Of a stretch of 38,473 nucleotides of DNA, positions 4,952 through 37,460 are shown one piece after another; the first letter of the stretch is position 1, and every line of letters starts with the position of its first letter. A model generated the notes under the pieces. That model was not told the origin of the DNA. It did no database searches and worked only from the letters and a program-made list of their open reading frames with translations. Position numbers and translations under genes: made by a program. This DNA is from a candidate division WWE3 bacterium GW2011_GWC2_41_23. Its GTDB lineage: Bacteria; Patescibacteriota; WWE3; UBA101185; UBA10185. Location of the stretch: assembly GCA_000996895.1 (NCBI GenBank), contig LCBB01000004.1:1-38473 (forward strand). The letters are read 5' to 3'.

Positions 4952-5118
4952 CATGGTTAACAGAAGAGCTGATGAATAGGATTAGATGCCTATTCGAACC
5001 AAGGTATGGGAGAGCTCTTTCGGATGGGGAAGTTGTTCTCATTGCGGATAATCTAACCAGCCTTTTTGAAGTTATGTTGAAACCAGGTCAATACAAAAAA
5101 GGATTTATAAATGGCTAA
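4933..5118 (+). CDS. Small hypothetical protein
   Basis: Overlaps upstream RHH ORF and downstream initiator ORF in a compact operon. Confidence 0.5.
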   Translation: MSGVPITWLTEELMNRIRCLFEPRYGRALSDGEVVLIADNLTSLFEVMLKPGQYKKGFING

Positions 5119-5866
5119 AGCAAGGATGATACACAATAAAATATCGCTATCTTTACAGGTAAACGAGCTATCAGATAAAGCGGCACTACTTTTTACCTGG
5201 GCTATTAGCCACGCAGATGATGATGGAAGAATGATAGGTGATGCAAAAACTATGCATGCCAGAATTGTCCCATTGCGTAAGTGGTCAGTCAGTCTGCTTG
5301 AAAAACTGTTAGAAGAAATTACGAATAAGGGACTTTGGCAAAGATGGAAGCAGAATAATTTGTGGTATATCGAATTCCCAACATGGAAAAGGTATCAACA
5401 AATAAGAAATGATAGATATTCTTCTTCTCTACTACCTGCATTCTCAACGAAAAATGGGGATTTTGGTATCCAGAATGACAACCAACCGACAACACAATCT
5501 AATATAGTTAAATCTAATCCAATTGAATTTAGTAAAGGCGAAGATAGTGAAGTGGTAACTCCATCGCAAATATCTTATAAGGAGGGAGAAGAAGACTATG
5601 TAACGCAGGGAGTGGTGAATCCCAGGAATTTTAAGCCTGCTAATAAGAAAGAGGCTGCGGCTTTAATTGCTTGGAAAAAGCTCGAGTCTCGTAATCCAAT
5701 GGCTTTTACAACCACTTATCTTAAAGCCTGTAGAAAAGGTTTACCGGAATGGAAATTCTACGACTTTTCTAGCGAGATTGACCAAGATAAAACAATAAAT
5801 AATAAGGGAGCCGTTTTTAACGCAAAAGTTGATGAATACTTTAATAGCAAGCAAAATGCGGTATAA
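5111..5866 (+). CDS. Phage-type replication initiator (N-terminal replisome-organizer-like winged helix)
   Basis: RMIHNKISLSLQVNELSDKAALLFTWAISHADDDGRMIGDAKTMHARIVP...WYIEFPTWKRYQQIRNDRYS matches phage replication-organizer N-terminal domain. Confidence 0.7.
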   Translation: MAKARMIHNKISLSLQVNELSDKAALLFTWAISHADDDGRMIGDAKTMHARIVPLRKWSVSLLEKLLEEITNKGLWQRWKQNNLWYIEFPTWKRYQQIRNDRYSSSLLPAFSTKNGDFGIQNDNQPTTQSNIVKSNPIEFSKGEDSEVVTPSQISYKEGEEDYVTQGVVNPRNFKPANKKEAAALIAWKKLESRNPMAFTTTYLKACRKGLPEWKFYDFSSEIDQDKTINNKGAVFNAKVDEYFNSKQNAV

Positions 5867-5867
5867 T
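5862..5867 (+). promoter_or_regulatory. -10 box (TATAAT) for leader 1, embedding the stop codon of the upstream ORF
   Basis: TATAAT 5 nt before stem A; TAA stop at 5864-5866 lies inside it. Confidence 0.5.
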
Positions 5868-5872
5868 TAGCA

Positions 5873-5979
5873 TGTAGCCAACTTAATAGGATTGTTCTTT
5901 TTAATGACCGTCTTAGGACAACTGAGAGCAATCTTTTGTTGGCTACACCTAGGGCGGTCATTTATTTTTCGAAAGTATT
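5873..5979 (+). ncRNA. Structured leader RNA (pseudoknot family member 1)
   Basis: A tgtagccaac (5873-5882)/A' gttggctaca (5938-5947); B gattgttct (5890-5898)/B' agagcaatc (5925-5933); C aatgaccgtcttagg (5903-5917)/C' cctagggcggtcatt (5948-5962), 15 pairs incl. 2 G.U; then tatttttc and recombinase ATG. Confidence 0.8.
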
Positions 5980-9203: not shown

Positions 9204-9401
9204 AAATCTTTTCCGGTCACACCTCCTTAAACCTCACCGATCTGAGGTGTAACATCAACATGGCCATGTTAATATGTCACCGCATCTTGTGTAGGTACAA
9301 ATTTAGACTATCCGATGTATCTTACAACTTAGGGACGGTTAAAGTCAATGGAAACTTGCCATTTTGACCTTAGTATTGTATGCTCTACCTACGGAGTTAA
9401 T

Positions 9402-9755
9402 ATGATTAAAAAAGAATTATTAGGAAGAAAAATCAAGGAATACCGCCTTAAAGCAGGAAAGTCACAGGATGAACTTGGCAGGTTTTTGGGTAAATCACAT
9501 GCAGCTATTTCTGACCTTGAGAGAGGTGTGACAGAAGTCACTGTTAAAGATCTCTCAATTATTGCTGAATTCTTAGGGGTTGCTTTAGAGACCCTACTGG
9601 AAGATGTTAAAGAAGATCAAAAAGTACTATCTTTTAGTCCACTTGTTAATTACAGAGACAGCAAGGATATGACCTCAGAGGAAAAATCAAAGGCAGACAA
9701 AGTTTCAAACGAGTTTATAAAATTTATAAACGATAATAGAGATGACCTCAAATAA
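9402..9755 (+). CDS. Xre-family HTH regulator
   Basis: LLGRKIKEYRLKAGKSQDELGRFLGKSHAAISDLERG... HTH; internal ATG preferred to the 9348 start. Confidence 0.85.
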   Translation: MIKKELLGRKIKEYRLKAGKSQDELGRFLGKSHAAISDLERGVTEVTVKDLSIIAEFLGVALETLLEDVKEDQKVLSFSPLVNYRDSKDMTSEEKSKADKVSNEFIKFINDNRDDLK

Positions 9756-10251
9756 TCGCGATAAAGCTCAAAACATATTAAAGTTAGCCGGAGTAACAGA
9801 ATCTCCTGTTGATATTGTAATGGTAGCAAAAGCATTGAATATCAAAGTAGTACCCTATGATTTCCCAGATAAAAGACGCGGGATGGTATATCTTGATGAA
9901 ACTATAAAGGTTATTGGTGTAAACAAAAACAATCCACAAAATCTTCAAAGATTTACAATTGCTCATGAACTTGGGCACTACCTCAATGGGCACGCCCATT
10001 ACGATTCCGTTTATACGGAAAATGAGAAATTTAAATTTGCAGATGCACATTTTCAACAAGAAAAAGAGGCTGATTTGTTTGCAGCAGAACTTCTTATGCC
10101 AAAAGAATTTCTAATAAAAGATTTGGACACTATTGGTTTAGATATTAAAAAACTTACAGAAAAATATCAGGTGAGCGAACAGGCAATGCATATTAGGTTG
10201 TCGTCTTTGGGCTTAATAGACAAATACGCTCAAAGAAAAAACACTGACTAA
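9742..10251 (+). CDS. ImmA/IrrE-family metallopeptidase
   Basis: RFTIAHELGHYLNGH (HExxH) and ADLFAAELLMPKE; overlaps the Xre ORF. Confidence 0.9.
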   Translation: MTSNNRDKAQNILKLAGVTESPVDIVMVAKALNIKVVPYDFPDKRRGMVYLDETIKVIGVNKNNPQNLQRFTIAHELGHYLNGHAHYDSVYTENEKFKFADAHFQQEKEADLFAAELLMPKEFLIKDLDTIGLDIKKLTEKYQVSEQAMHIRLSSLGLIDKYAQRKNTD

Positions 10252-11680: not shown

Positions 11681-12021
11681 TTAATATTGGGGAAATTTAT
11701 GCGTAAACAACATAAGCTCCCCGCTAGCCGGTAACCATTGCAGATTACCCATATAAGTTTCCCCATATGACCGAGTAAGTTGCTAAACGGAGAGCTTCCG
11801 TTCACTTACTCGGACTTTTTCACCATGCCTTAGAGGTTTAGGTGACTATATTCAATTACAGTATTAATTTATCACGTTTTTATACATAATTTAATAGATA
11901 TAAGTAGTTTTAGTGTTTTTGTAAAAAAATAGAATACTGTAATAGCAATGTATTTCGAATTTTCCGGTGCCTATAAAAAAAGAGTGGATCGATAAGAATT
12001 GATTGGAAAGAGAGTTTTGCG

Positions 12022-15605: not shown

Positions 15606-15807
15606 TAAAGCTGCTTTAGAATCATTTAAGAAGATATACTTTGAAGAATTCAAAGTATTACTTTCTGATGAAACAGCAGACATGAAAGGTAAGGAACTGC
15701 TGCAGTTTATTAGCTTGATATATAAACCAACTACACAAAACAATTCGATCGCAGTGACCACAGCTGATACAAATACTTCAAATTCTAAAAATATGGTTGT
15801 ACAATAA
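15598..15807 (+). CDS. Small hypothetical protein
   Basis: aaaggag SD then MLSKAALESFKKIYFEEFKVLL...; internal start of the 15544 ORF. Confidence 0.55.
   Translation: MLSKAALESFKKIYFEEFKVLLSDETADMKGKELLQFISLIYKPTTQNNSIAVTTADTNTSNSKNMVVQ
15800..15805 (+). promoter_or_regulatory. -10 box (TACAAT) for leader 2
   Basis: TACAAT 5 nt before stem A; upstream ORF stop TAA at 15805-15807. Confidence 0.4.
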
Positions 15808-15810
15808 ATC

Positions 15811-15895
15811 TGCGGTCAGATATAGGTAAAGTTTTTTAATGCCCTCATCGGACAGAACTTTACCGTTCTGATCGCACCGGTGGGGGCTTTAATTT
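15811..15895 (+). ncRNA. Structured leader RNA (pseudoknot family member 2)
   Basis: A tgcggtcaga (15811-15820)/A' tctgatcgca (15867-15876), 1 G.U; B ggtaaagtt (15825-15833)/B' aactttacc (15856-15864); C gccctcatcgg (15841-15851)/C' ccggtgggggc (15877-15887), 2 G.U; then tttaattt and ATG. Confidence 0.8.
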
Positions 15896-17644: not shown

Positions 17645-17929
17645 TTAGTACACTGTTTGAGGTTTTATATTGCAGTTAATTCGAATCCAGTCTAAGTCGT
17701 AGTCCCCCATTTCTTGTCTTTCTCCATCAATAACAAAATATTGGCGTAAGTTCACTGTTTTATCATCTTTAACACTTGGCATTTGGTTATCAATCCATGC
17801 ATCTGGACACACTCTTTTTTTACCGGAAATTATAGATGTGTTGCGGGTTTTAAGAATTAGTAGAACAAAGGTCAGCGATACAACAACCAGGAGTATGCTA
17901 AATATGATTCTTTTTATAGGACTGCTCAC
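17645..17929 (-). CDS. Small membrane/secreted protein
   Basis: 94-aa ORF with N-terminal TM; overlaps stop of the giant ORF by 4 nt. Confidence 0.6.
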   Translation of the reverse strand: MSSPIKRIIFSILLVVVSLTFVLLILKTRNTSIISGKKRVCPDAWIDNQMPSVKDDKTVNLRQYFVIDGERQEMGDYDLDWIRINCNIKPQTVY

Positions 17930-20900
17930 TTTCTTTTTCGTCTAAGAATAATTATGGTACCAATACTTAAAACAACCAAGCTAGGAATGATATATCTCCA
18001 AATATTTGATTTACGAGTTTCTTCAACAACACTGGGATTATCTTTCTCTACATCTTCCAAACCTAGTACATTCTTTGTCTCATCACCTGATTCAAGAACC
18101 TCGTCAGTAGCCGCAAGAGTTGTGGGACTCTCGTAGGTATTGATAATGACCTTTTCCTGAGTTGATGGAATCTCTATTGATATTGTCTTCGTGTTGCTTC
18201 TGTTACCAGCCCCGTCCTCAGAAACTAGTTTGAAGTAATATGTTTTACCTTCTTTAACATCATTTACTGTCACATCTTCATCGTCCCTATCATTTTCTGC
18301 TATTCTTGAGTCGCTATTTTTGTCAAAGCTTTCACTGTATCCAAGATATACAAACACTTTGTCTATATCGCTGTCATTATTTTCCCAAGTTAATTTTATT
18401 GTTTTATCATCGCTGTCGTAGCCTACTCCAACGTTTTCAGGCCTATCTGGGGCTTCTGTATCTTCTTCTACGGCCTTTTTGGTTGTAAAGCTTAGCTCAT
18501 CACCTACAACTTCAGGTGACCCATGCGAGACCGCTCTGTAATAATATGTTGTTTCGGCAGTTAATGGACTAATAGTTACATTATGACTAATTACCATAGG
18601 CGAACCATCCGTCTCAATAGTTGAATAAGCATAACCATAGTTTGGAGCTGTACCTAAAGTTGGATGTGACGCCGTATCATATATTACTCTACTAGTGCTC
18701 AGATGATCTGTCGTCCATGTAATTGTTATGCTGGTACTCTCAAGATTAGTAGAACTTTCCCCTGAAATAACTGGAGGAGGTAATACTGTAATATCTATGG
18801 TAGCTTCATTACTGTCATATTCTCCATCGTTTGTTTGGTATGTAAAACTATCGTTGCCTATATAACCCGTATCAGGTGTATATGTTACTTGATTTCCTGA
18901 GACCGTTGATAAGGAACCATTTGTTGGGTCAGAATTAATCGAATAGACAAGTGGATCATTTTCAATGTCATTGCCTAATAGGGTTATCGATATCGCTGCC
19001 TCTTGAGTAGTTGAGTATGCATCAGCGCTCACGGTTGGTGCATCATTTACAGGATTAATGGTTAGATTAACAAAACCCGTGTCTGTTAGAGTACCGTCTG
19101 ACAGAGTGTATTCAAAACTTGCTGCTCCGTTATAGTTATTTACCGGAGTGAATATAATATTTGAACCGTCTATATAAACTGTACCGTGTGTTGGGGTTGA
19201 AACTCCGATAACAGAAAGTGTATCAAGATCAACGTCGGTATCGTTTGTAATTAAGTCATTTTTAGCTAATATCAACTGCGTATCTTCGTCAAAAGATGCG
19301 TTATCTTGATTTGCTTCTGGAGCGTCATTCACCGAATTCACAGTAATATTTACAGTTACGATATTGCTATCAGCCAGACCATCATTAACTTTGTATGTAA
19401 ATGTATCAACCCCATTATAATTCGTATCCGGTGTATAAGTTAATTCATTTCCTGAAATTGTTCCCAAAGTTCCATGATTTGCACCGGTTTCAACTGTATA
19501 TGTAAGAGTGTTTGCTGGAATATCAGCATCGCTAGCATTTAAAATAATGCTTTTTGAAACGTCTTCATTTGTTGATGTGTTTACATCTTGTGCAACTGGA
19601 GAGGTGTTAACTTCATTAACTGTAATCTCTATTTCCTCAGAATCAGTGTAAATTCCATCAGTTACATTAACAGTAACATTATAAGTATTAGGTCCTTGTA
19701 CCTCTGTAGGTGTAAAACTAAAATTGCCTGTATCAGATTCTATTGAAGCTCCTGTTGGTGCATTTGTTAGAGAAAGTTCAAGAGCATCGCTTGTATCAGA
19801 ATCGTTTGCTGTAACCGTAAAGCTAAGTTCTGCTAACTCATCAATAGATTTATCGCCAATTACATCAAGAGCTGGTAGATCATTTATAGCATTGATTGTG
19901 ATAGTAACTGTACCTGTGTTACTTTCAAAATTACCATCGTCCACCTTGAATGTAAATGAATCGCCACCAAAGTAGTTTTCATTAGGAGTGTAAATGACTT
20001 GATTTCCGTAAGGTCCTCCAAGCGCTCCGTTAGATGTACTATCTATTATTGTATAAGATAAACTATCACCCTCAATATCTGTACCTACTAAGTATATTGA
20101 AACTGAATTATCCTCGTCTGTAACAGCAGTACCATCATTAACAGAAGGCGCATCATTTATAGGATTAACTGTTACTAAAACGGTAGTTGTATCTGTTAAC
20201 GAACCGTCGGAAACAGTGTAATCAAAGCTTGCTGATCCAAAATAATTAGAAGTTGGAGTGAATATAACATTAGAGCCATCAATAGATACCAATCCGTTTA
20301 CTGGGTTAGAAATTGAACTTAAAACTAATGAGATATCGTCAACATCAGTGTCATTTTCAATTAGAGTCTCTTTTGAAACGGACAAAGTATTATCTTCATC
20401 AACAGAAGCAGAGTCGGGATTTGCTACGGGGGCGTCATTGAAGGCGGTAACAGTTATAAATACAGTTGCGGTATTGCTATCCGTTTCGCCATCATTTGCT
20501 TTATAAGTAAAGGAATCGTCGCCGTAAAAATTTGCATTTGGTGTATAAGTAGCACTGTCATTCAAAATTGAAATCGTACCGTTAGATGGATCTGTTACCT
20601 TTGCATACGTAATGGATTGCGTAGGAATATCAGAATCTGTAGCATTAAGCGTTATAATTTTTTCCAAATCTTCCGATGTTGCGGCATTAACATCGTTCAC
20701 TAAAGGAGCTACATTTATCTCATTAACGGTTACAGTTATTATTTCAGTATCTATGCTTACCCCATCCGTAACATTTACATCAAACGTGTATTCCTGAGGA
20801 CCTTGTGACTCTGAAGGAGTAAAGCTGAAATAACCACTGTTAGTATCTATAGTGGCTCCCGTGGGCTCATCACTAAGGTAATAGGTTAAAGAACTATCAG

Positions 20901-23900
20901 GATCTGTAGCAGTTGCTGTGAAAGTAAGTTCAGTTAATTCGTCTACCGATTTATTGCCAATTTCATCTAACACCGGAGGGTCATTAAACTCTGTCACGGT
21001 TATATCAATTGTCGCGATGTTACTATCTAACAACCCATCATTTACTTTAAAAGTAAAAGAATCGTTGCCTTCGTAATTTTCGTTAGGGCTGTAGTCTACT
21101 TGACTACCAACTATACTACCCAACGAACCATTAGATGGGTTATCTACGATAATATAGCTTATTGAATCCCCATCAACGTCACTTCCCGTCAAGGTAATTG
21201 TAACAACGCCATCTTCCTCCGCAGAAGCTGTACCCAAGTTAGCTACAGGAGCGTCATTAATTGGGTTTATTGTAACGGTGACTGTTGCTTTATCAGTTAA
21301 CTCACCATCAGAAACAGTGTAATCAAAATATGCAGTACCGTTAAAATTACTGTCAGGAGTGAATACAACGTTATCACCATCTATAGCAACACTACCATTT
21401 ACAGGGGTTGATACATTACTTAAAGTTAAAGTAACATCATCTACATCTGTATCATTTGTTAATAGGCCACTTTCTGCGATTATTGTGTCTTCATCTTCAT
21501 TACCAGAGGCACTGTCTGGGTTTGCATCGGGACCATCATTAATTGCGTTTACTGTAATGTGAACTGTTTCTGAACTACTATCGGTAACGCCATCGTTAGC
21601 TTTATAAGTAAAGGCATCATCACCATAATAGTTTGTGTCAGCCGTGTACGTTACCTGATCCCCAGCAATTGACACTAATCCGTGCGATGGGTCGGTTACA
21701 GAATAATTTAATGTTTGCGTTGGTATATCTGTGTCATTACCTTCGAGAGTAATAACTTTAGCAGTGTCTTCATTAGTAGTAGCCCACAATTCGTTAACAA
21801 CCGAAGCCACATTTACCTCGTTCACGGTAACGGTTATTGTTTCGACATCACTATCTAATCCATCGGTAACATTTATATCAACATTATAGGTATTTGATCC
21901 CTGGCTCTCTACGGGTGTAAAACTAAATTCTCCTGTAGATGAATTGATAGAAGCCCCTGTTGGTGCATTGGAAAGTGAGAAGGATAAAACGTCTTCTGTG
22001 TCCACCTCAACTGCTGTAGCAGTGAAGTTAAGTTCATTAAACTCATCAATCGTTTTATCTCCTACTGTATTTAAAACCGGAGCATCATTAATTGGGTTTA
22101 TAGTAATAGATACCGAAGCGGTATCAGTCAATTCACCGTCTGTTACAGTGTAAGAAAAGCTTGCAGAGCCGTTATAATTTGAGCTTGGTGTGAATACAAC
22201 ATTATCACCATCTATTTCAACTGTACCGTTTACAGGATCAAAAACTATTGATAACGAAAGGCTATCTTCATCTACATCCTCGTCATTAGCTAGTAAAGAC
22301 GCTTTAGTTATGACCAAAGCGGAATCTTCATCAGTAGAGCTGCTATCGTCATATGCCACTGGCGCATCATTAATTGAATTTACTGTAATTGTTACAAGTC
22401 CTGTGTCTGTCAAACTACCATCAGATATTAAATATTCATAGGTTGCTTGTCCATTAAAATTCTCAGGTGGCGTGAATTCAATTGTACTGCTATTAAATGT
22501 GAGAACACTCCCTGTAGGTGTAACATTGCTTACACTTAAAATACTGAAGTCATCTGTTGTATTATCCGGATCGGTATCATTTGATAATAGATATGCATGA
22601 TTTACCAAAAGTGTGGAATCCTCGTTAACATCCAAATTATCATCAGTGGCAATAGGGCTATTGTTTATCTCGTTAACTGTTACTGAAAAACTTTCAGTAG
22701 CAATATTGTTTATTTCAAAACCATCATCTACTTGGATAGTAAAATCAAATACGCTGCCTCCCTGACTTTCATCAGGAGTAAAGTTAAATTCACCTGTTTC
22801 AGTGTTTATTGACGAATTATCAACAGAAGAATTTGTAAGTGAATACGAAGGTGCTCCACCATCTACATCTGTTACAACAGGAGTAATTTGTAAATTATAA
22901 TATTCGTCAATCGTTTGGTTTGGGATACTTTCTATAACTGGCGCATCATTAATGCCTGTAATTGTTAAGGATACCAAAGCGTCGTTACTATCTACAGACC
23001 CATCATTTACTACAAATTCAAAAGAATCACTGCCATTGTATCCGGGATTTGGTGTATAGGTTGCAACATTACCGTCGATATCTACATTACCGTGCACAGG
23101 AACAGTACTAACTATAAATGTAAGAATATCGTCTTCGGGATCTGTGCCATTTAAGCCTATATCCACTGAATTATCTTCATCAGTTTCGGCTGTTGTTCCA
23201 TATGCTGTAGGAGCGTCATTTACCGCTACTATATTAACCGTTACATTCTCAGTCGCAGAGAATGATGGATCTGCACCATCCTCTACTTTAATAGATAAAA
23301 CGCACGAAGCAGATGGTACGGGTCCATTAGGAGTAAATGAATAGTAACCTGTGTTTGTATCTAATGATCCGTTGCATGTATCTAACTCTGTTTTGCTCCA
23401 ACTGGCACTTGGTCCATCTGGGTCTGTTACTTCAGCATCATATGTATAAAGAATATCTTCGGTGGCCGTTATTGGTGCGGTACTATCTATAGACGGGGCA
23501 TCGTTTATAGAATTTACGGTAATGTTTACTGTGGCACTGTTGGTTAAATATCCATCCGAAACAGTATATTCAAAGCTTGCGGATCCAAAATAATCTGTAG
23601 ATGGTGTAAATACAATATTAGCCCCATCTATATAAACAGTTCCATTAATTGGTTTAGAAACACTTTGAACATTTAATAAGGAGTGATCGTCATCAACATC
23701 AGTATCGTTAGTTAATACTTCATCCTTAGTTAAGATTAATTGTGTGTCTTCATCTGTGGAAGCTGAGTCAGAATTAGCTGTTGGTGCATCATTGATAGGA
23801 TCAACTGTAATAGTTACAGTTGCATTCTCACTATAATCTGTACCATCACTTATTTTATAAACAAAGGTATCGATACCATAATAGTTGGTGTTAGGTGCAT

Positions 23901-26900
23901 AACTAAATGAGCCATTATTATTTAGTGATAAGTCACCGTTAGTTACATCAGAGACAAGAGCCGTGGATATACTTGAATTTTCAGGGTCACTATCATTACT
24001 CAGTATTCCTGGAGCTGTAACATTAAGAACAGAGTCTTCATCAGTTGAATAATCATCGCCTGTACTAATTGGTAAATCATTTACAGCAGTTACTGTTACT
24101 GTAGTTGTTTGAGTATCAGACAGATTTGGTGATCCGTAGTCACTTATGGTTACAGAAACTTCACATGTAGAAATTGGGGTTGGTCCAACTGGTGTAAATG
24201 TATAAACTCCCGAAGAAGAATCTAGCGAACCATTACAAGTATCTGATGCTGATTTTGTCCACACAGCACTGGGTCCGTCTACATCTGTTTCGTCAGCATC
24301 GTATGTGTAAAGCGTATCTTCTGTAGCTGAGTTTGGCGCGGTTGTATTAATTGAAGGTGCGTCATTAATTGAGTCTACCGTAATTGAGACTGTGGCAAAG
24401 TCACTGTCGGCACTGCCATCGTTAACTTTGTATGTAAATGAATCAGAACCATTATATTCGGAATTTGGAGTATATGTTGTTTGCCCACTACTAATAGGTC
24501 CTAAACTTCCATGGGTTGGGCTTGTTCCCAAAATGTAGCTAAATGTGTTTCCTGGAAGATCGGGATCAGTTACATTTAATGTAATGTCTTTTGATCTATC
24601 TTCATCTGTTGAAACACTAAAGTCATTTACGACAGGAACTACATTAACCTCGTTTACTGTGATAGTAATGTCTTCTGTATCACTTGTATTACCGTCTGTT
24701 ACTGAAACGGTTAAATTATATGAATTAGGTCCTTGGCTTTCTGTTGGAGTGAAGGTGAAGAATCCTGATGTTGACCCAATAGAAGCTCCTGTTGGTGCAT
24801 TTATAAGCGAGTATGTTAGTGAACTATCTGGATCAGCTGCGCTTGCAGTGAATGTGAGTGTATCAAGTTCATCGATAATTTTATTCCCAATCGCATCAAG
24901 TATCGGAGTATCATTTATAGCCCCAACAGTAATACTTACGGTTGCAGTGTTACTATCAAGAAACCCATCGCTTGCTTTAAATGTAAAGGAGTCTCCGCCA
25001 ACGTAATCAGTATTAGGTACGTAGTTTACTTGAGTACCTGAAATTATTTCTAAAGAGCCATGTGTTGGCGCGTCTATTAAGTTAAAGCTGAGGCTATCTT
25101 CATCAATATCATTGCCAGTGAGCGTAACTAATACCTCAGTGTCTTCATCAATAGAAATTGATTGAGAATTGGCAGTAGGTGCGTCATTCACAGAATTAAC
25201 AGATATACTCACTGTAGCTGTATTACTATCAGCATTCCCATCGTTAGCTTTATATGTAAATGAATCAGGCCCGTTGTAATTTTCGTTTGGTGTGTATAAA
25301 ACTTGATTTCCGGATACTGTGCCAAGATTCCCATGACTTGCGCCAACTACAATTGAGTAACTTAAAGAATTTGCTGGTTCATCAGTATCTGTAGCATTCA
25401 GGGTTATTGCTTTGCTGTCATCTTCATCTAATGAATCACTTACGCCGTAAGAAACAGGTACTACATTAACCTCATTTACAGTTATTGTAATGTCTTCGTA
25501 ATCAATGTTTGACCCATCTGTCACAGAAACAGTCATATAATAGTTATCGGGTCCTTGGCTTTCTGTTGGAGTGAAGGTAAATACACCACTAGTTGGGTTT
25601 ATTGATGCTCCACTTGGTTCATCTGTAAGATAGTAAGTTGTAGAGGGCCCATCTGGATCAGTGGCAGAAGCTGTGAATGTTAACTGTGTTAATTCATCAA
25701 CAGTCTTATTGCCAATTGGGTCAAGTACAGGTAGTACCTCATTAACATTAATAGTGTATGTCTTTGAAGTTGTACCATCTTGAGCAGTAACTATTAATTC
25801 ATTGCCAGTTAATATTGGGTCGTTTAGATTCGTATCACTCCAAGTTTGATTGGGCTCATCCTTTGTTAATGCTGCTAAAAATGTTGCCTCTGAGGTATTA
25901 AATGGGACGTTAGAAATAGTATCGAGTTCAACTGTATAAACTCCTGAAGATACTGTAGCTATGGTGCTAGGAGACTCTACTGTTACGGTAACAACATAAT
26001 CCTGTGTAGTACTATTAACAGCGGTTACCGTATATGTAACAGGGCTCGAGAAATCCTGTGCTACTTCGGAGGGCGGACTTACCATTTCCCCAGTATGTGT
26101 AATTGTTGGAAGTAACGAAGATATGTTGGTTCCATAGGGTACTACAAGGGAAATTGTATGTTCGTTTTCATTGATAATACCGGTAATTCCCAAGGAATTA
26201 AAGTTAAATGAAACGATATCCTTTGAGCCATTTAGTGATCTAACGGCATTATAAGCATTTATCCTTTTTCCTGTAACGGTTTTACCAACTAAGCTCGGTT
26301 TTGTATCCCCAGTATTTAAAATTGCATTCTTTACTTCATCATAAGTTAGTGAACTATCTATACTCCATAATAGTGCCGCAAGACCCGCTGTGTATGGTGC
26401 AGCAAACGAGGTCCCGTCTACAAATTCGTATTCATATGAACCAGCTGCTCTTTTAAGTAGAACAATGTCGTCTATTAAACAACCATCCCCGTATGTTCCT
26501 TTATCGGAATCGGAATCTGTTACCCATCTAAATCTTAATTTAAAATTACTTGTATAAAAATCCGATGCGATCGATGCTGTCATGTAAGCGGATGCGTAGC
26601 CGCCATCATCCAGTTCATCACCATTGAGAATATCTATCATGGGTTCATCATATTTTCCTTCCCCCCACCCAAGATCTACCTCACTAAAGTTTGTTCCGTC
26701 AGAACTTGCTTCAACAACCATATAATCATGCCAACCATCTAATGGATACTCAGTATCGCACTCTGTATAGAAACCAATAGCAACATCACTCGCTCCATCT
26801 AGATTCACTGTTGAAGTTGTTATTTTACTATTGTTATTTTCTGAATATGGATATTCTAAATCCCCATAGAGTACCTTCCAACCTGGTCCCCAAATGTCGC

Positions 26901-28659
26901 TATAGTCTATGGTTGCAAAAGTACCATCTTCTGTCCATCCACTGGGTATAAATGGAATAATGACTGATTCAAAATCCTCGTCAAGTACAGTAGAATCATT
27001 AAAAGATAACGAAGTTGAATATATATTTTCACCTGGTGCCCCAACGTCTACAAATGTAGAGCTATAATTTGAAAAGTTAGACAACCCGTCATTCTGATCA
27101 GTTGATGCCACTGAAATGATATTATTAAGGTTAAGGTCTGACGGGTAGGCGTGCGTGTAGTCATTGTTGGAAGCTTCGTTTCCAGCCGCAGCTATAAAAA
27201 TTCCTCCATAATTTAGGAATCTATTTATTGCGTCGTATTCAGCTTGTGAATATGCAGTACCTGCAAAGCTAGCGTTTATAACTTTAGCTCCGTTTTGAAT
27301 TGCAAAATCAATTGCCATAACCTCTGAAGCGACATCGAAGCCGTGTTTCAAAGCCATAATCTTAGCTCTAAGAGTGACCCCTAATATTCCCTGATTATTA
27401 TTTCTTGATGCGGCAATTATTCCTGCAGAATATGTCCCGTGAATGCTGTCTGTGGGTTGGGGATCCTTGTCGTTGTCTTCAAAATCGTACCCGTGTAAAC
27501 AACCTCCAAGGTTATTTCCGGAAATATCCTTACAATTAGATCCATCCCACATGTTTCCAACCAAATCAGGATGGTTATATGCAACACCACTATCAATTAC
27601 TGCTACTATAACGTCAGTAGAACCTTCATCCACCAACCAAGCTTCTGGAGCATCAATATCAGAGTCCAATGTCCCTATCACATTATTAACTGTTTGACCT
27701 GTATTATCTAAACCCCACAAATTTTGTTTATAGGTGTCATTACTATTGATCGTTTGGGGATATCTTAAATAATTTGGCTCTGCATACTCAACTCTTTTGT
27801 CTTCTCTTAATTCTTTTATTTTATCTTCTACCGATTTGTTATCTTTAATTCTAAGTAATGAAATATTGCCAGATCTAGACTCTTTAACTTTTTCTAATTT
27901 CTTAGTAAGAGCAAAAACACTAGCTTTAGCTCTACCAAGTGTTCGTTCTAGGTCTATCTCGCTATCTCTATACTTTACCAATACCTCCCCCGGCATGTAT
28001 TCCAAATTCTCAGAGGGAACTCTATTAAAAAGGTCTCTATTCTCTTCTTTTGATTTCTTTTCACCGTGTCGCTGATTTAACCTGAGCATTTCATCGTCAC
28101 TTTGCACTGCTGTATTTTGTTCAATAGTAGGATCTCGTGTAACCTCACTATTTTCACTTGTCTCCCCAGTCAGTTCAGACATAATTGTTTCATCTGGGAG
28201 AACTTCAATTGGAATTATTTCATCAGTATCATTTGGGATTTCATTCGGGCCTTGTTCAGATACAGTTGTTTCCTGAGGAGACAATGTATCTTCGGTCAGT
28301 TCTAGTGCTGTTGGTTCGCTACCAGGACTTAGAATTTCAAGGGAATCGCTATATGTTACCTCACCCACAGGCTCCGGTTGCTCATCACTATCAGATGGCA
28401 GAACGCCCGGTTCTGAATCAAGCAGACTTTCAGTTGGGACAGCCTCAACAGCTTCACTATTGGGATCAGAACCAGTAATTGCTTCTAATTGCTCCGGAGG
28501 TGTAAATTCTTGGTCCCCAGACAACTCTAAAATAGTATTGGATGTTTGAGCAAATACCGGCGTAAAATAAAGAATTGGATAAAAGTTCTGAAAAATTAAT
28601 GAAAATATTACAAATTGGTTTAACAACCTATGTGCTATTTTCTTATGTTTAATTTTCAT
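17926..28659 (-). CDS. Giant surface protein: S8 subtilisin-like peptidase, ~25 cadherin/Ig-like repeats, two Fn3-like domains, C-terminal TM anchor
   Basis: Signal peptide; prodomain (MPGEVLVKYRD...VEYAEPNYLR); D (VAVIDSGVAYNHPDL), H (SIHGTYSAG), S (DGTSFAAPYTAG); repeated xITVNxxNDAP modules; C-terminal IIPSLVVLSIGTIIILRRKRK. Confidence 0.95.
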   Translation of the reverse strand: MKIKHKKIAHRLLNQFVIFSLIFQNFYPILYFTPVFAQTSNTILELSGDQEFTPPEQLEAITGSDPNSEAVEAVPTESLLDSEPGVLPSDSDEQPEPVGEVTYSDSLEILSPGSEPTALELTEDTLSPQETTVSEQGPNEIPNDTDEIIPIEVLPDETIMSELTGETSENSEVTRDPTIEQNTAVQSDDEMLRLNQRHGEKKSKEENRDLFNRVPSENLEYMPGEVLVKYRDSEIDLERTLGRAKASVFALTKKLEKVKESRSGNISLLRIKDNKSVEDKIKELREDKRVEYAEPNYLRYPQTINSNDTYKQNLWGLDNTGQTVNNVIGTLDSDIDAPEAWLVDEGSTDVIVAVIDSGVAYNHPDLVGNMWDGSNCKDISGNNLGGCLHGYDFEDNDKDPQPTDSIHGTYSAGIIAASRNNNQGILGVTLRAKIMALKHGFDVASEVMAIDFAIQNGAKVINASFAGTAYSQAEYDAINRFLNYGGIFIAAAGNEASNNDYTHAYPSDLNLNNIISVASTDQNDGLSNFSNYSSTFVDVGAPGENIYSTSLSFNDSTVLDEDFESVIIPFIPSGWTEDGTFATIDYSDIWGPGWKVLYGDLEYPYSENNNSKITTSTVNLDGASDVAIGFYTECDTEYPLDGWHDYMVVEASSDGTNFSEVDLGWGEGKYDEPMIDILNGDELDDGGYASAYMTASIASDFYTSNFKLRFRWVTDSDSDKGTYGDGCLIDDIVLLKRAAGSYEYEFVDGTSFAAPYTAGLAALLWSIDSSLTYDEVKNAILNTGDTKPSLVGKTVTGKRINAYNAVRSLNGSKDIVSFNFNSLGITGIINENEHTISLVVPYGTNISSLLPTITHTGEMVSPPSEVAQDFSSPVTYTVTAVNSTTQDYVVTVTVESPSTIATVSSGVYTVELDTISNVPFNTSEATFLAALTKDEPNQTWSDTNLNDPILTGNELIVTAQDGTTSKTYTINVNEVLPVLDPIGNKTVDELTQLTFTASATDPDGPSTTYYLTDEPSGASINPTSGVFTFTPTESQGPDNYYMTVSVTDGSNIDYEDITITVNEVNVVPVSYGVSDSLDEDDSKAITLNATDTDEPANSLSYSIVVGASHGNLGTVSGNQVLYTPNENYNGPDSFTYKANDGNADSNTATVSISVNSVNDAPTANSQSISIDEDTEVLVTLTGNDIDEDSLSFNLIDAPTHGSLEIISGTQVNYVPNTDYVGGDSFTFKASDGFLDSNTATVSITVGAINDTPILDAIGNKIIDELDTLTFTASAADPDSSLTYSLINAPTGASIGSTSGFFTFTPTESQGPNSYNLTVSVTDGNTSDTEDITITVNEVNVVPVVNDFSVSTDEDRSKDITLNVTDPDLPGNTFSYILGTSPTHGSLGPISSGQTTYTPNSEYNGSDSFTYKVNDGSADSDFATVSITVDSINDAPSINTTAPNSATEDTLYTYDADETDVDGPSAVWTKSASDTCNGSLDSSSGVYTFTPVGPTPISTCEVSVTISDYGSPNLSDTQTTTVTVTAVNDLPISTGDDYSTDEDSVLNVTAPGILSNDSDPENSSISTALVSDVTNGDLSLNNNGSFSYAPNTNYYGIDTFVYKISDGTDYSENATVTITVDPINDAPTANSDSASTDEDTQLILTKDEVLTNDTDVDDDHSLLNVQSVSKPINGTVYIDGANIVFTPSTDYFGSASFEYTVSDGYLTNSATVNITVNSINDAPSIDSTAPITATEDILYTYDAEVTDPDGPSASWSKTELDTCNGSLDTNTGYYSFTPNGPVPSASCVLSIKVEDGADPSFSATENVTVNIVAVNDAPTAYGTTAETDEDNSVDIGLNGTDPEDDILTFIVSTVPVHGNVDIDGNVATYTPNPGYNGSDSFEFVVNDGSVDSNDALVSLTITGINDAPVIESIPNQTIDEYYNLQITPVVTDVDGGAPSYSLTNSSVDNSSINTETGEFNFTPDESQGGSVFDFTIQVDDGFEINNIATESFSVTVNEINNSPIATDDNLDVNEDSTLLVNHAYLLSNDTDPDNTTDDFSILSVSNVTPTGSVLTFNSSTIEFTPPENFNGQATYEYLISDGSLTDTGLVTITVNSINDAPVAYDDSSSTDEDSALVITKASLLANDEDVDEDSLSLSIVFDPVNGTVEIDGDNVVFTPSSNYNGSASFSYTVTDGELTDTASVSITINPINDAPVLNTVGDKTIDEFNELNFTATAVEVDTEDVLSFSLSNAPTGASINSSTGEFSFTPVESQGSNTYNVDINVTDGLDSDVETITVTVNEVNVASVVNELWATTNEDTAKVITLEGNDTDIPTQTLNYSVTDPSHGLVSIAGDQVTYTADTNYYGDDAFTYKANDGVTDSSSETVHITVNAINDGPDANPDSASGNEDEDTIIAESGLLTNDTDVDDVTLTLSNVSTPVNGSVAIDGDNVVFTPDSNFNGTAYFDYTVSDGELTDKATVTVTINPINDAPVANLGTASAEEDGVVTITLTGSDVDGDSISYIIVDNPSNGSLGSIVGSQVDYSPNENYEGNDSFTFKVNDGLLDSNIATIDITVTEFNDPPVLDEIGNKSVDELTELTFTATATDPDSSLTYYLSDEPTGATIDTNSGYFSFTPSESQGPQEYTFDVNVTDGVSIDTEIITVTVNEINVAPLVNDVNAATSEDLEKIITLNATDSDIPTQSITYAKVTDPSNGTISILNDSATYTPNANFYGDDSFTYKANDGETDSNTATVFITVTAFNDAPVANPDSASVDEDNTLSVSKETLIENDTDVDDISLVLSSISNPVNGLVSIDGSNVIFTPTSNYFGSASFDYTVSDGSLTDTTTVLVTVNPINDAPSVNDGTAVTDEDNSVSIYLVGTDIEGDSLSYTIIDSTSNGALGGPYGNQVIYTPNENYFGGDSFTFKVDDGNFESNTGTVTITINAINDLPALDVIGDKSIDELAELSFTVTANDSDTSDALELSLTNAPTGASIESDTGNFSFTPTEVQGPNTYNVTVNVTDGIYTDSEEIEITVNEVNTSPVAQDVNTSTNEDVSKSIILNASDADIPANTLTYTVETGANHGTLGTISGNELTYTPDTNYNGVDTFTYKVNDGLADSNIVTVNITVNSVNDAPEANQDNASFDEDTQLILAKNDLITNDTDVDLDTLSVIGVSTPTHGTVYIDGSNIIFTPVNNYNGAASFEYTLSDGTLTDTGFVNLTINPVNDAPTVSADAYSTTQEAAISITLLGNDIENDPLVYSINSDPTNGSLSTVSGNQVTYTPDTGYIGNDSFTYQTNDGEYDSNEATIDITVLPPPVISGESSTNLESTSITITWTTDHLSTSRVIYDTASHPTLGTAPNYGYAYSTIETDGSPMVISHNVTISPLTAETTYYYRAVSHGSPEVVGDELSFTTKKAVEEDTEAPDRPENVGVGYDSDDKTIKLTWENNDSDIDKVFVYLGYSESFDKNSDSRIAENDRDDEDVTVNDVKEGKTYYFKLVSEDGAGNRSNTKTISIEIPSTQEKVIINTYESPTTLAATDEVLESGDETKNVLGLEDVEKDNPSVVEETRKSNIWRYIIPSLVVLSIGTIIILRRKRK
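18771..22077 (-). repeat. Three tandem copies of a four-module ~1.1-kb superrepeat inside the giant gene
   Basis: Homologous boundaries (VLNTVGDKTIDE, VLDEIGNKSVDE, ALDVIGDKSIDE, then end) at ~22077, 20973, 19872, 18771: spacing 1104, 1101, 1101 bp by hand count. Confidence 0.8.
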
Positions 28660-29888: not shown

Positions 29889-32006
29889 ATGAACAAAGAC
29901 AGGTTATTTGAGAATCTAGTAAATAAGAATAATTTAGAAAAAGCATTTGACTATCTTTTAGTTGAAATAGAGAACTCTAGTCTTGCAATTGACCCTATAT
30001 GGACCCCCGCACTGCAAGCAATAAAAAAAAACAGAAAAACATATTTCAACGCACTAAGTGAACTCCTTATAAACGGATACTTCCAAGCAGACAAAGCAAG
30101 ATATTTTAAATTTCCGAAAGACAATTTGGGAATTAGGCCGGTCGCAATACTATCTATAACAGACAGGATTATCTACCAAGCTATATTTCTTAAGCCCGTA
30201 TTAGGTAACGTCTTAAAGACTAAATATACACAACCGCCTTGTTATACACCAAACCTATCGTCAGAAACAGAAAAAACATATTTAGAAGACTGGCACCAGA
30301 AATGGGATGATTACATTAACGATCAAGTTAAAGCATATAGAGACGGTTATATATACAAAGTAGACCTTGATGTGAAATCATTTTTCGATAACATCAACCA
30401 CGAACTAATAAAAGATTTTTTAGTGAAAGAATGTAATGTAAACGGAACAAAGGTATTAGAGATACTTATGAACCTGCTTTCGACCTGGGCACATAAACCT
30501 GGTTTTGGTGTTCCCCAAGGACCTGAAGCTTCTATATTCATCGCATCGGCTTTTCTCTCGCAACTTGATGATAAAGGTATTTCGTTAAGCTCGGAGTTAG
30601 AGTTTAGACAATTTAGATACAATGACGACATTTGTTTGATGGCAAAAACCCCCGAAGTATTACACCAACTAATAGAAGTACTTTCAAATTATCTTTTTGA
30701 TATATTTCTAGAACTAAATGGTAAAACTTCATTTTGTCTACTGGACGAGGGCGAACTATTAAAGTTAGCAAAACGACGCATTTACTCACCTTATGGTATT
30801 AATGAAGATTCTTTATACACAGTACTTAACATTGAGAACTCCATACCAGATTATTTAATCAAACTTAGAAATAATCGGCAATTAGAACAGTATGAGGTAT
30901 CAGCACTTAAATATTATCTTAAAGGCGCAAAGAATAGAGCTTACTGTACCCGTTTTATCGACCTGCTTGATAAATCTCACTCACTCTCACTTTACATTTG
31001 TAGGTATGTCCAAAAATTTGTAGACGATGCGTCTGTTTATAATTACTTGTGTAAAACATATAGCGAAAAACACTTATATTCATGGTCTAAATTTTGGGTG
31101 CTTAAAACGCTAATTTCATCTAAACACTTTCAAGATAAGAAAAATTTAGAAAGTTCTAAAACCCTTGTATTAAACGGCCTGAACGATAAAAGTTGGGAAA
31201 TAAGGTCATTGTGCCTGTATATTGCCGAATTATTTGGATTTATAAGCGATTCAAGTGCGCTAATCAGTAAACTCCACAAATCAGCAGATAACATCTTTGA
31301 AAAAAGTATGACCACTTATTTATTGGGAAGTAAGAATGAATCAGGGATGATGTCTGACTTACTAAGAAGTAACTGCACAGATTTACAAATAATTGCTTTT
31401 AGTGCCCTAAATAAACCAGACTTATCAAACTTACCCAATGACCTATCACCATTTAGCCAATATTTATTAAAAATTAACAACACTAGTACTGTATCCAGTA
31501 GTACATCAGTTATTCAACACTCTCTGCTTGATTTAGTAAGTGAGTGTGGGGCTGTGCATATAAGTTTAGATACAACTAAACTAAGCAAAGAGCTTGGGTT
31601 AACTTGGAATCAAAATAATAGCGGGAAGCTTAAAAGGTCTAAAAAAATTGTACATTGGGTAGAACTAAACTATTCTGGAGAACTAGTGATGGACAGTGCT
31701 TATATTCTATCGAAGCCGAATATTGATAGTGAAAATGAATGTTTCATTTCCTATGTTATCAATCGTTCTGGCAAGAATATAACTAAAAAAGATATTGAGA
31801 ATGACCAAAATATTAAGATAACAAGGTCTTTTAACAACATATTAAATGATTTGGGTTTTAAGGGTGAGATAAAAAAGCTGTTCTTCCCGATAACAAGTGC
31901 GGGAGAAGTGAGGTTTTTCAGAAAGTTGAAGCAGATAGATGTCACATCGTCCTCCATAGACGAAAAGAAACTGGAGAAACAACTCAAAAAACTCAGACCC
32001 TTTTAA
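29889..32006 (+). CDS. Reverse transcriptase with YNDD active site and ~400-aa C-terminal extension (Abi/UG/DRT-like)
   Basis: RT motifs: VDLDVKSFFDNINHELI, GVPQGPEASIFIA, FRQFRYNDDICLMA (YNDD at 30618-30629); C-terminal HEAT-like helical region. Confidence 0.85.
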   Translation: MNKDRLFENLVNKNNLEKAFDYLLVEIENSSLAIDPIWTPALQAIKKNRKTYFNALSELLINGYFQADKARYFKFPKDNLGIRPVAILSITDRIIYQAIFLKPVLGNVLKTKYTQPPCYTPNLSSETEKTYLEDWHQKWDDYINDQVKAYRDGYIYKVDLDVKSFFDNINHELIKDFLVKECNVNGTKVLEILMNLLSTWAHKPGFGVPQGPEASIFIASAFLSQLDDKGISLSSELEFRQFRYNDDICLMAKTPEVLHQLIEVLSNYLFDIFLELNGKTSFCLLDEGELLKLAKRRIYSPYGINEDSLYTVLNIENSIPDYLIKLRNNRQLEQYEVSALKYYLKGAKNRAYCTRFIDLLDKSHSLSLYICRYVQKFVDDASVYNYLCKTYSEKHLYSWSKFWVLKTLISSKHFQDKKNLESSKTLVLNGLNDKSWEIRSLCLYIAELFGFISDSSALISKLHKSADNIFEKSMTTYLLGSKNESGMMSDLLRSNCTDLQIIAFSALNKPDLSNLPNDLSPFSQYLLKINNTSTVSSSTSVIQHSLLDLVSECGAVHISLDTTKLSKELGLTWNQNNSGKLKRSKKIVHWVELNYSGELVMDSAYILSKPNIDSENECFISYVINRSGKNITKKDIENDQNIKITRSFNNILNDLGFKGEIKKLFFPITSAGEVRFFRKLKQIDVTSSSIDEKKLEKQLKKLRPF

Positions 32007-35461: not shown

Positions 35462-35700
35462 AAATACAAAAATATGAGGACTTAACAAAACTTAACATTT
35501 CAGAGCTTATGGTATATGAGATTGAACTTCAGTCTTACCTTCAAACACACGAGCCCGATATGTCAAAACAAGGAACAGTGGATGTAAATGACAGACCTTT
35601 TGACAGACAACTTTATGAAGAAAAGAAGCAACAATGGTATTCAATTTGGGTCGAGTATTTTACGCGACCTGTTGAGGAAGGACTAGATATTAAGTTATAA
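35446..35700 (+). CDS. Small hypothetical protein preceding recombinase 3
   Basis: MFNVTKIQKYEDLTKLNISELMVYEIELQSYLQ...; internal ATG preferred. Confidence 0.5.
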   Translation: MFNVTKIQKYEDLTKLNISELMVYEIELQSYLQTHEPDMSKQGTVDVNDRPFDRQLYEEKKQQWYSIWVEYFTRPVEEGLDIKL

Positions 35701-35701
35701 T
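35696..35701 (+). promoter_or_regulatory. -10 box (TATAAT) for leader 3, embedding the upstream stop codon
   Basis: TATAAT 6 nt before stem A; TAA stop 35698-35700 inside it. Confidence 0.5.
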
Positions 35702-35707
35702 TTTAGT

Positions 35708-35802
35708 GTTGAATAGATTTAGTTACGAATGTGTAAATAGCCGTATTGGTATAAATGCATTCGTGCATCTATTCAACAACCAGTACGGCTTTTTATATTA
35801 AT
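35708..35802 (+). ncRNA. Structured leader RNA (pseudoknot family member 3)
   Basis: A gttgaataga (35708-35717)/A' tctattcaac (35768-35777); B acgaatg (35725-35731)/B' cattcgt (35758-35764); C agccgtattggt (35739-35750)/C' accagtacggct (35779-35790), 1 G.U; then tttttatattaat and ATG. Confidence 0.8.
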
Positions 35803-37449
35803 ATGGATTTTTTAGTAAACAAAGATATACAAAATAAAAACGGCATTGAATACTGTAGAAAATCTACGGAGTCAGAAGACCGCCAAGCCTTTTCTCTTAA
35901 AGACCAACATGATGTCAATTTTAAAGTAGCGGAAAGATATGGTGTAAAAGTTAAAAAATCGCTTCAGGAATCAATGTCTGCCAAGAAAAGAGGAAGACCG
36001 TTTTTCAATGAAATGGTTGCAAGTGTTGAAAGTGGTAAATATGAAGTCATTGTATGTTGGGCATTAAACCGTTTAGCCCGTAATTCAGTTGATGGTGCGA
36101 TGCTAATTGAGTTGATGGATAATAAAAAGCTTCATGCAATTCTAACTCCTGGAAAAGTCTACTATAACAGTGGCGACGACAAGCTGTTACTTCAAATAGA
36201 ATTTGGATTAGCTAAGAAATATTCCGATGATTTAGGACCTACTGTGTTAAGAGGTATGTATTCAAAGCTTAAGCGTGGTTGGTATCCTGGTCCTGCAAAG
36301 CCTGGTTATATCAATAGAAAAGAAAAAGGCGAAATAATACAGGTAATAGATGAAGAACGATTTCCACTATTAAGAAAGGGTATTGAAATGTACCTAGAAG
36401 GAGCAAGAGTCGAACATGTACTTGAGCTACTAAATGATAAGTGGGGTTATAAAACCATACAAACTGAAAAAACAGGAAATAAACCTTTATCAATATCAAG
36501 CTTTTATCGAATACTAAACGACAGTTTTTACTTTGGAAAAATAGTGTGGAACGGTGAGGAAGGTGAGCTTAATCCCGAAGTACCAAAACTTGTGTCCGAG
36601 AAAGAGTTCTGGGATATACAACGAAGACTTGGTGCAAAAGGTATTTCAAGACCTTCAAAACACATGGAAGTCCCCTACCGAAGCATCATTAAATGTTCAG
36701 AGTGTGGAAGCGCCATAATCACTTACCCCAAAATTAAGAAACTAGCTTCAGGAGAAACAGTAGTTTATTTATATGCTAAATGTTCAAGCAAAAAACATTG
36801 TACACAGAAGCACATCTCCGTTTCAAAAATTGAAAAGCAACTTAATGAGATTGTGAAAACCGTAGAAGTGTCTCAAGACTTCCATGATTGGTTTTTGAAA
36901 TGGCTAAAACACGACCATCAAGTTGAAACTACTGAAACCGAAGTTCTACTACAAAGAATAGACGCACAGATTGAAATCCAACATAAACGAAGAAATAATT
37001 TATTTGAGATGAGACTTAATGGCGAAGCGGTTGAAGTTGAGTATAGGACCAAGAAAGAAGAAATCGAAGTTGAAATCAAAAGATTGGAAAAAGAAAGAGC
37101 GGGGGTTAAGTACGCGTCTGACGATTGGATTAAAAGAGCTGAAAAACGCATTAACTACGCTTTATACGCAAGAGACACTTTAGAAAATGGTGATTACTTA
37201 CAAAAATCAAGTGTACTTTCGGATTTGGGTTCGAACTTTTTGCTAAAAGAGGGTTTACTCTTTGCTGACATAGACCCGATGCTTGCCGTCTTCAAAAAAC
37301 ACTATGAAATTGTTAATAAGGATTTAATAGGGTTCGAACTGGAAGATAAGTTGTTAAATCAAGCTAACTCTGAAATTTTGAAATCATGGCTGGGGGATAG
37401 GGATTCGAACCCCAATAGGCGGGACCAAAACCCGCAGTCCTACCGTTAG
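35803..37449 (+). CDS. Large serine recombinase 3
   Basis: EYCRKSTESEDRQAFSLKDQ resolvase N-terminus, zinc ribbon (CSECGSA...CSSKKHC); ATG at 35803 preferred (35755 start would lie inside the leader); last residues are antisense tRNA. Confidence 0.9.
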   Translation: MDFLVNKDIQNKNGIEYCRKSTESEDRQAFSLKDQHDVNFKVAERYGVKVKKSLQESMSAKKRGRPFFNEMVASVESGKYEVIVCWALNRLARNSVDGAMLIELMDNKKLHAILTPGKVYYNSGDDKLLLQIEFGLAKKYSDDLGPTVLRGMYSKLKRGWYPGPAKPGYINRKEKGEIIQVIDEERFPLLRKGIEMYLEGARVEHVLELLNDKWGYKTIQTEKTGNKPLSISSFYRILNDSFYFGKIVWNGEEGELNPEVPKLVSEKEFWDIQRRLGAKGISRPSKHMEVPYRSIIKCSECGSAIITYPKIKKLASGETVVYLYAKCSSKKHCTQKHISVSKIEKQLNEIVKTVEVSQDFHDWFLKWLKHDHQVETTETEVLLQRIDAQIEIQHKRRNNLFEMRLNGEAVEVEYRTKKEEIEVEIKRLEKERAGVKYASDDWIKRAEKRINYALYARDTLENGDYLQKSSVLSDLGSNFLLKEGLLFADIDPMLAVFKKHYEIVNKDLIGFELEDKLLNQANSEILKSWLGDRDSNPNRRDQNPQSYR

Positions 37450-37460
37450 ACGATCCCCCA
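37387..37460 (-). tRNA. tRNA-Gln (anticodon UUG) with encoded CCA
   Basis: Minus strand TGGGGGATCGTCTAACGGTAGGACTGCGGGTTTTGGTCCCGCCTATTGGGGTTCGAATCCCTATCCCCCAGCCA; acceptor, anticodon and T arms pair. Confidence 0.95.

What the first reader, a model, noticed from the sequence alone, without database searches (positions are those of the whole stretch)
5862..5979. Leader 1: 15-bp loop-to-tail helix before serine recombinase 1
C (5903-5917) and C' (5948-5962) form 15 consecutive pairs (two G.U) while A/A' (10 bp) and B/B' (9+ bp) enclose C. C' begins on the base after A' ends, allowing coaxial stacking. The stop codon of the upstream replication gene lies inside the -10 box, so the leader RNA would be a new transcript rather than readthrough.
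Basis: partly seen in the sequence, partly recalled or inferred. Interest (0 to 1): 0.75.

Follow-up and report, generated by a model that had tools for sequence, protein, structure and literature searches.

The report
Conserved pseudoknot leader of serine recombinases
The stretch before this mobile-element integrase gene encodes a real, evolutionarily conserved folded RNA that starts its messenger RNA and sits against its start codon; the same fold precedes many integrases in Patescibacteria and is in no RNA catalogue I could search, but what it senses or does is not yet known.

Summary
Helices A (5873-5882/5938-5947), B (5888-5899/5924-5935) and C (5903-5917/5948-5962) are present. The window's three recombinase leaders are its three best matches to this topology (scores 83, 77, 75; next 54; shuffles up to 56). 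A covariance model found 49 candidates (47 with a convincing C helix) in Patescibacteria; 35 precede a large serine recombinase (LSR) gene, 33 of them directly. All three helices covary: C is 97.6% paired over 42 distinct sequences, with two-sided changes at 12 of 14 pairs. Rfam 15 has no matching family. The module is spread over the LSR tree with at least 10 gains or losses. C' usually ends 1-25 nt before the start codon, so I favour translational control of integrase synthesis by forming or melting C:C'; mechanism and trigger are inferred. Simultaneous formation of A, B and C is not proven: A/B and C alone are nearly isoenergetic, and A'-C' has no linker. A terminator, a coding uORF and an att site are disfavoured. 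A second subtype carries a boxA-like tail and is unexplained.

The parts
5862..5867 (+). -10 box TATAAT of the leader promoter; overlaps the TAA stop (5864-5866) of the upstream rep-like ORF
   Evidence: same spacing (-11 from helix A) in 42 of 47 relatives
5873..5882 (+). helix A, 5' strand; first base is the predicted transcription start
   Evidence: covariation; promoter spacing
5883..5887 (+). 5-nt side of the asymmetric A/B internal loop (TTAAT); 2 nt on the other side
   Evidence: sequence; similar asymmetry in many relatives
5888..5899 (+). helix B, 5' strand
   Evidence: covariation
5900..5902 (+). U-rich loop L1 before C
   Evidence: U run before C in most relatives
5903..5917 (+). 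helix C, 5' strand, in the loop of B
   Evidence: covariation over 42 sequences
5918..5923 (+). loop L2 (ACAACT); ACA(A) recurs in many relatives
5924..5935 (+). helix B, 3' strand (B')
5938..5947 (+). helix A, 3' strand (A')
5948..5962 (+). helix C, 3' strand (C'), tail; 17 nt before the start codon
5980..7560 (+). large serine recombinase 1 (526 aa), controlled gene
   Evidence: Pfam Resolvase, Recombinase; PHROG integrase E 4.4e-71
5111..5866 (+). upstream gene, replication-initiation-like
   Evidence: PHROG 16167 E 1.3e-8
15800..15805 (+). -10 box TACAAT of leader 2
15811..15890 (+). leader 2: A 15811-15820/15867-15876, B 15825-15835/15854-15864, C 15838-15851/15877-15890 (one U.U); recombinase start at 15896
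35696..35701 (+). -10 box TATAAT of leader 3
35707..35790 (+). leader 3: A 35707-35718/35767-35778, B 35724-35734/35755-35765, C 35739-35750/35779-35790; recombinase start at 35803
   Evidence: (found by model R2, not in its training set)

Best explanation
This is a cis-acting structured leader RNA, one of a family not in Rfam 15, that forms the 5' end of large serine recombinase (LSR) mRNAs in Patescibacteria. The transcript starts at the first base of helix A. A and B form a hairpin as the RNA emerges, presenting C in its loop; the tail C' then pairs with C, giving a loop-to-tail pseudoknot (or, if A/B opens, a competing long C hairpin). C' lies just upstream of the recombinase start codon, so forming or melting C:C' most likely sets how well ribosomes start, keeping integrase synthesis low until a signal or bound factor shifts the balance. 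Shown: the three covarying helices, the fixed promoter spacing, the position before LSR genes, the closeness to the start codon. Inferred: simultaneous formation, the translational step, C:C' as the OFF state, and the trigger, which is unknown.
For: Covariation: C 97.6% paired against 76.8% shuffled, 12 of 14 pairs with two-sided changes, covariation score 0.654 against 0.230 and at most 0.18 when slid; A and B 94.4% paired, 14 of 18 pairs with two-sided changes (RNAalifold 17 of 18). Context: 34 of 49 hits precede an ORF homologous to the window's LSRs; one more (L092) is an LSR by its N-terminal sequence. Model R2 recovered leader 3 and L005 without training on them. Promoter: -10 hexamer at -11 in 42 of 47. 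Distance from C' to ATG is 1-25 nt in nearly all directly placed copies (44 twice, 71 once). In leader 2 and several others G-rich C' lies at Shine-Dalgarno distance. No intrinsic terminator by scan. The module is not merely inherited with one LSR: at least 10 label changes on the LSR tree.
Against: No expression or probing data. In some relatives the start codon is 40-71 nt from C' and three of them have their own G-rich site, and in the boxA-like subtype the LSR, if present, is 240-400 nt away, so occlusion of the start site cannot be universal. C' of leader 1 holds no clear Shine-Dalgarno sequence. The covariation does not tell a pseudoknot from two alternating folds. The structure could serve mRNA stability instead.
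Confidence: 0.5

Rival explanations
1. Transcription attenuator: C:C' is the stem of an intrinsic terminator and A/B the alternative; termination before the recombinase is the regulated step.
For: C alone and A+B are close in energy in many members; leader 1 and a few others have several U after C'.
Against: Most members have only two or three U and then AAGU or GAGU after C'; no terminator found by scan; the loop between C and C' is 30 nt; A', B' and C' share no bases, unlike usual terminator/antiterminator pairs.
Confidence: 0.13
2. Promoter-proximal antitermination or processing element: the pseudoknot modifies RNA polymerase, as HK022 put RNAs do (my knowledge), and boxA-like copies are its fuller form.
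For: It is at the very 5' end in all members; subtype II has GTTCTTTAAAAT soon after C', and rRNA leaders of two of these genomes hold similar words (GATCTTTAAAAATT, GGCTCTTTGAAAA).
Against: Directly placed leaders lack the boxA-like word and go straight into the gene with nothing obvious to antiterminate; in L079, L102 and L074 the word is one arm of a long inverted repeat, so it may not be boxA.
Confidence: 0.1
3. Upstream open reading frame control: ribosomes start at the AUG inside C and melt the structure.
For: A start codon (35 ATG, 3 GTG) sits at the same place in C in 38 of 46 members, and 13 of 46 reading frames end exactly at the end of C'.
Against: The start codon is lost in 8 members including leader 3; many frames stop early; ending at C' is no more frequent than frame chance; codons 2 and 3 change through compensatory base pairs, not synonymously.
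Confidence: 0.07
4. Antisense-controlled pseudoknot as in IncI/IncB plasmid rep leaders, with a counter-transcript competing for the loop.
For: Same topology (hairpin loop to downstream tail) and a mobile-element setting with a rep-like gene next door.
Against: No antisense promoter identified: the scan around leader 1 found only a minus-strand site at 5784-5755, no more than shuffles give, and it would transcribe away from the leader; the pairing is 14-15 bp rather than short; no conserved leader peptide.
Confidence: 0.07
5. A DNA site (recombinase att site or single-stranded replication structure) rather than RNA.
For: It mostly travels with recombinases; some solo copies lie near tRNA genes that such elements target.
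Against: Fixed promoter geometry and strand; G.U pairs used freely (UG is the commonest pair at two positions); pseudoknot order, not a palindrome; the tRNA genes that look like integration targets lie at the other end of several recombinase genes.
Confidence: 0.04

Closest known systems
preQ1 riboswitches acting on translation (H-type and HL-out pseudoknots; review PMC11625349)
   Same: Leader pseudoknot whose last helix pairs the tail next to the start codon; works at translation in several classes.
   Different: No sequence or Rfam match; a far longer loop-to-tail helix (14-18 bp), a long two-part stem, no known ligand, linked to recombinases rather than queuosine genes.
IncI-alpha ColIb-P9 repZ and IncB/IncL-M rep leader pseudoknots (Asano and Mizobuchi 1998, listed in PMC10724649)
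   Same: Mobile-element leader in which a hairpin loop pairs with a downstream tail to switch translation.
   Different: There a short pairing activates rep and needs a leader peptide and an antisense RNA (my knowledge); here no conserved uORF or antisense was found and the gene is an integrase.
HMP-PP (thiS) riboswitch with terminator-embedded aptamer (title and abstract PMC6478431)
   Same: Compact leader in which aptamer and expression platform overlap.
   Different: C' here is not followed by a proper U tract in most members.
IS110 bridge RNA (my knowledge)
   Same: Structured RNA beside a recombinase gene of a mobile element.
   Different: Different recombinase class; no target-like loops identified; here the RNA is the 5' end of the recombinase mRNA.

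Membership tests
Any of the 4227 Rfam 15 families | Score above the family's gathering threshold | tested here: not met
   No Rfam match overlaps a leader in the window or in 13 related loci; best sub-threshold matches at leader 1 are chance level
H-type pseudoknot leader (structural kind) | Hairpin whose loop pairs with the 3' tail, both conserved | tested here: met
   Covariation of A, B and C
H-type pseudoknot leader (structural kind) | Both stems formed at once in the same molecule | not testable with these tools
   Needs probing or a structure; energies only show close alternatives
preQ1 riboswitch | Conserved aptamer core recognised by Rfam models | tested here: not met
Intrinsic-terminator attenuator | GC-rich stem followed at once by a run of about 6-8 U | tested here: not met
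   Scan finds none at leader 1, though it allows loops of 3-8 only; most members lack the U run
IncI-alpha/IncB rep leader system | Translated leader peptide needed for pseudoknot formation | tested here: not met
   No conserved reading frame
IncI-alpha/IncB rep leader system | Antisense RNA against the loop | tested here: inconclusive
   Promoter scan near leader 1 gives nothing above shuffles; no RNA-seq available
IS110 bridge RNA | IS110-type DEDD transposase partner | tested here: not met
   Partner has Resolvase and Recombinase domains
Large serine recombinase (downstream gene) | Resolvase N-terminal, Recombinase and zinc-ribbon domains | tested here: met
   zinc ribbon of recombinase 1 and 3 is below its curated cut-off, and only Resolvase is found for recombinase 2

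The most novel reading that the evidence does not exclude
The RNA is more than a leader: it is a dedicated RNA partner of Patescibacterial serine recombinases, binding the recombinase as it is made (autoregulation or an RNP), which would explain solo promoter-pseudoknot copies left near tRNA genes without a recombinase.
Probability: 0.07. Interest if true: 0.92.

Novelty: new variant of a known kind. Interest (0 to 1): 0.62.

Why it matters
Large serine recombinases are major genome-engineering enzymes, but how their synthesis is held in check in nature is little known. A dedicated, covarying leader RNA across a whole radiation of uncultured bacteria would show that integrase expression is under RNA control, give a handle for mapping mobile elements in Patescibacteria, and offer a testable switch (C against C').

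Tried and rejected
Viral contig searches with all three recombinases and with an exact core DNA pattern found no relative; phage and plasmid records have no similar leader DNA. A coding uORF was rejected. An intrinsic terminator is disfavoured. A larger pseudoknot of the same order in L038 (about 158-265) is not directly before the recombinase there and was not counted. Weak R2 hits L009 and L107 lack a C helix and were dropped; L106 looks decayed. Literature: no paper found linking Patescibacteria, serine recombinases and noncoding RNA; Weinberg 2017, which I believe first described many such motifs, was not held.

Full report
Observation. Leader 1 is as described. Helix A is 5873-5882/5938-5947, B is 5888-5899/5924-5935 (12 bp), C is 5903-5917/5948-5962 (15 bp with two G.U), and C' begins on the base after A'. 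The TAA of ORF 5111-5866 lies within TATAAT at 5862-5867. The nested part alone folds at -32.6 kcal/mol, z -3.45. A scan for the order A B C B' A' C' puts the three recombinase leaders of the window first, second and third (83.0, 77.2, 75.2), against at most 54.2 elsewhere on either strand and 55.8 in shuffled windows; 1500 local shuffles reach only 52.4.

Relatives. The window lies in a small genome (837 kb, 96.65% complete); the closest recombinase relative comes from a WWE3 genome and most others from Patescibacteria. Some recombinase relatives there carry the same leader with different letters. A covariance model from three members (R1) found more in 48 genomes of the class; a second model from 18 members (R2) found matches in 31 of 389 genomes of the phylum. 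R2 also found leader 3 and L005, which were not used to build it. Of 49 hits, 47 have a convincing C helix. A downstream ORF homologous to the window recombinases follows 34 of 49, and L092 is a further recombinase by its start. In 33 of these 35 the gene begins directly after the leader; in L079 and L102 it follows after about 401 and 243 nt.

Structure. For C, 42 distinct sequences give 97.6% standard pairs against 76.8% when shuffled; 12 of 14 pairs change on both sides; the covariation score is 0.654 against 0.230 shuffled and no more than 0.18 when slid. The rows were cut out by a script that seeks pairing, and a few were put in register by hand, which leans towards pairing; the two-sided changes and the earlier set of 20 do not depend on those few rows. 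For A and B, 94.4% of cells pair and 14 of 18 pairs change on both sides; RNAalifold on 51 rows recovers A and B by itself, 17 of 18 pairs with two-sided changes. Unpaired parts are conserved too: U residues before C and ACA(A) after it. The linker between A' and C' is 0 to 2 nt in most.

Promoter. A TATAAT-like hexamer begins exactly 11 nt before helix A in 42 of 47 members; 39 of 47 match at five or six positions; TTG is at the right place for a 17-bp spacer in 15. The transcript therefore begins at about the first base of A. The generic promoter scan misses it at leader 1 for want of a good -35.

Gene position. C' ends 1-25 nt before the recombinase ATG in nearly all directly placed copies, 44 nt in two and 71 nt in one. 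In several (leader 2, L086, L095, L104) the G-rich part of C' lies where a Shine-Dalgarno sequence would. Pairing of C' should therefore hinder initiation. This is inference, not shown.

Can all three helices form together? A and B make about 22 bp in leader 1, and C' starts with no linker after A'. Laid out straight, L1 (3 nt) and L2 (6 nt) cannot span this. If the asymmetric internal loop between A and B (5 and 2 nt) folds B back along A, the loop end of B comes close to the A/C junction and the fold looks feasible. This is my own geometric argument and was not modelled. The alternatives A+B and C alone are close in energy (leader 1 -31.9 and -27.8; leader 2 -29.3 and -27.5; leader 3 -27.0 and -28.0), so a two-state switch is equally open. 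That A', B' and C' share no bases speaks for the pseudoknot.

History. On a tree of 62 recombinases the presence of the leader needs at least 10 changes, fewer than the 20.8 expected for random labels: an old module, clustered with lineages but gained or lost often. The three recombinases of the window are distant from each other on this tree, yet all three have it. Absence was judged by failing to find the topology or a model hit in the fetched loci, so some divergent leaders may be missed.

Subtype II. About a dozen copies are followed by GTTCTTTAAAATTTTTGCGTTTTTTC or a close variant. In L079, L102 and L074 (L074 without a pseudoknot) this is one arm of a roughly 300-nt inverted-repeat structure that ends beside a recombinase start. 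Others have no recombinase; five lie within about 300 nt of a convergent tRNA, and where checked the neighbours look like ordinary chromosomal genes (EamA, DUF5680, SBP_bac_5). The word resembles boxA, and rRNA leaders of two of these genomes hold similar words, but the resemblance is weak evidence. These copies may be remnants or non-autonomous derivatives.

Known families. No Rfam family matches. LOOT RNA occurs elsewhere in the window and is a separate element on the other strand. The nearest workings are translational pseudoknot leaders such as preQ1 riboswitches (PMC11625349) and the rep leaders of IncI-type plasmids (references in PMC10724649). It is not a member of either by the tests in the table.

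Verdict. A real, conserved, apparently undescribed leader RNA family of large serine recombinases (existence about 0.95, cis-leader of the recombinase mRNA about 0.9). Translational control is the most likely mode (about 0.5); the trigger is unknown.

Noticed in passing
window 15811-15890 and 35707-35790: The other two serine recombinases have leaders of the same architecture with different sequence; the start of recombinase 3 is probably 35803, not the first in-frame ATG at 35755, which lies inside the leader.
   Followed up: yes
window 37387-37460 (-): tRNA-Gln (ttg) overlaps the 3' end of recombinase 3; tRNA genes also adjoin or overlap the 3' ends of related recombinases (L002, L005, L064), suggesting integration at tRNA 3' ends.
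   Followed up: partly
window 11730-11844 (-): LOOT RNA (Rfam RF03000, 70.8 bits) over the start of a protein of unknown function.
   Followed up: partly
window 29889-32006: Reverse transcriptase most similar to the UG19 group of defence reverse transcriptases (PADLOC E 3.7e-50).
   Followed up: partly
window 17926-28659 (-): A single 3577-aa ORF on the opposite strand inside the mobile region.
   Followed up: no
L038 158-265: A larger RNA-like region with the same A-B-C-B'-A'-C' order (14, 13 and 17 bp) in another genome, about 1.2 kb upstream of a recombinase and followed by another gene.
   Followed up: partly
L079, L102, L074 and relatives: A roughly 300-nt inverted-repeat structure with a boxA-like arm upstream of a recombinase (with promoter and pseudoknot before it in L079 and L102); solo copies of its 5' part lie near tRNA genes.
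   Followed up: partly
window 9742-10251: IrrE-like metallopeptidase next to an HTH regulator (9348-9755), resembling capP-type or phage regulatory pairs.
   Followed up: no
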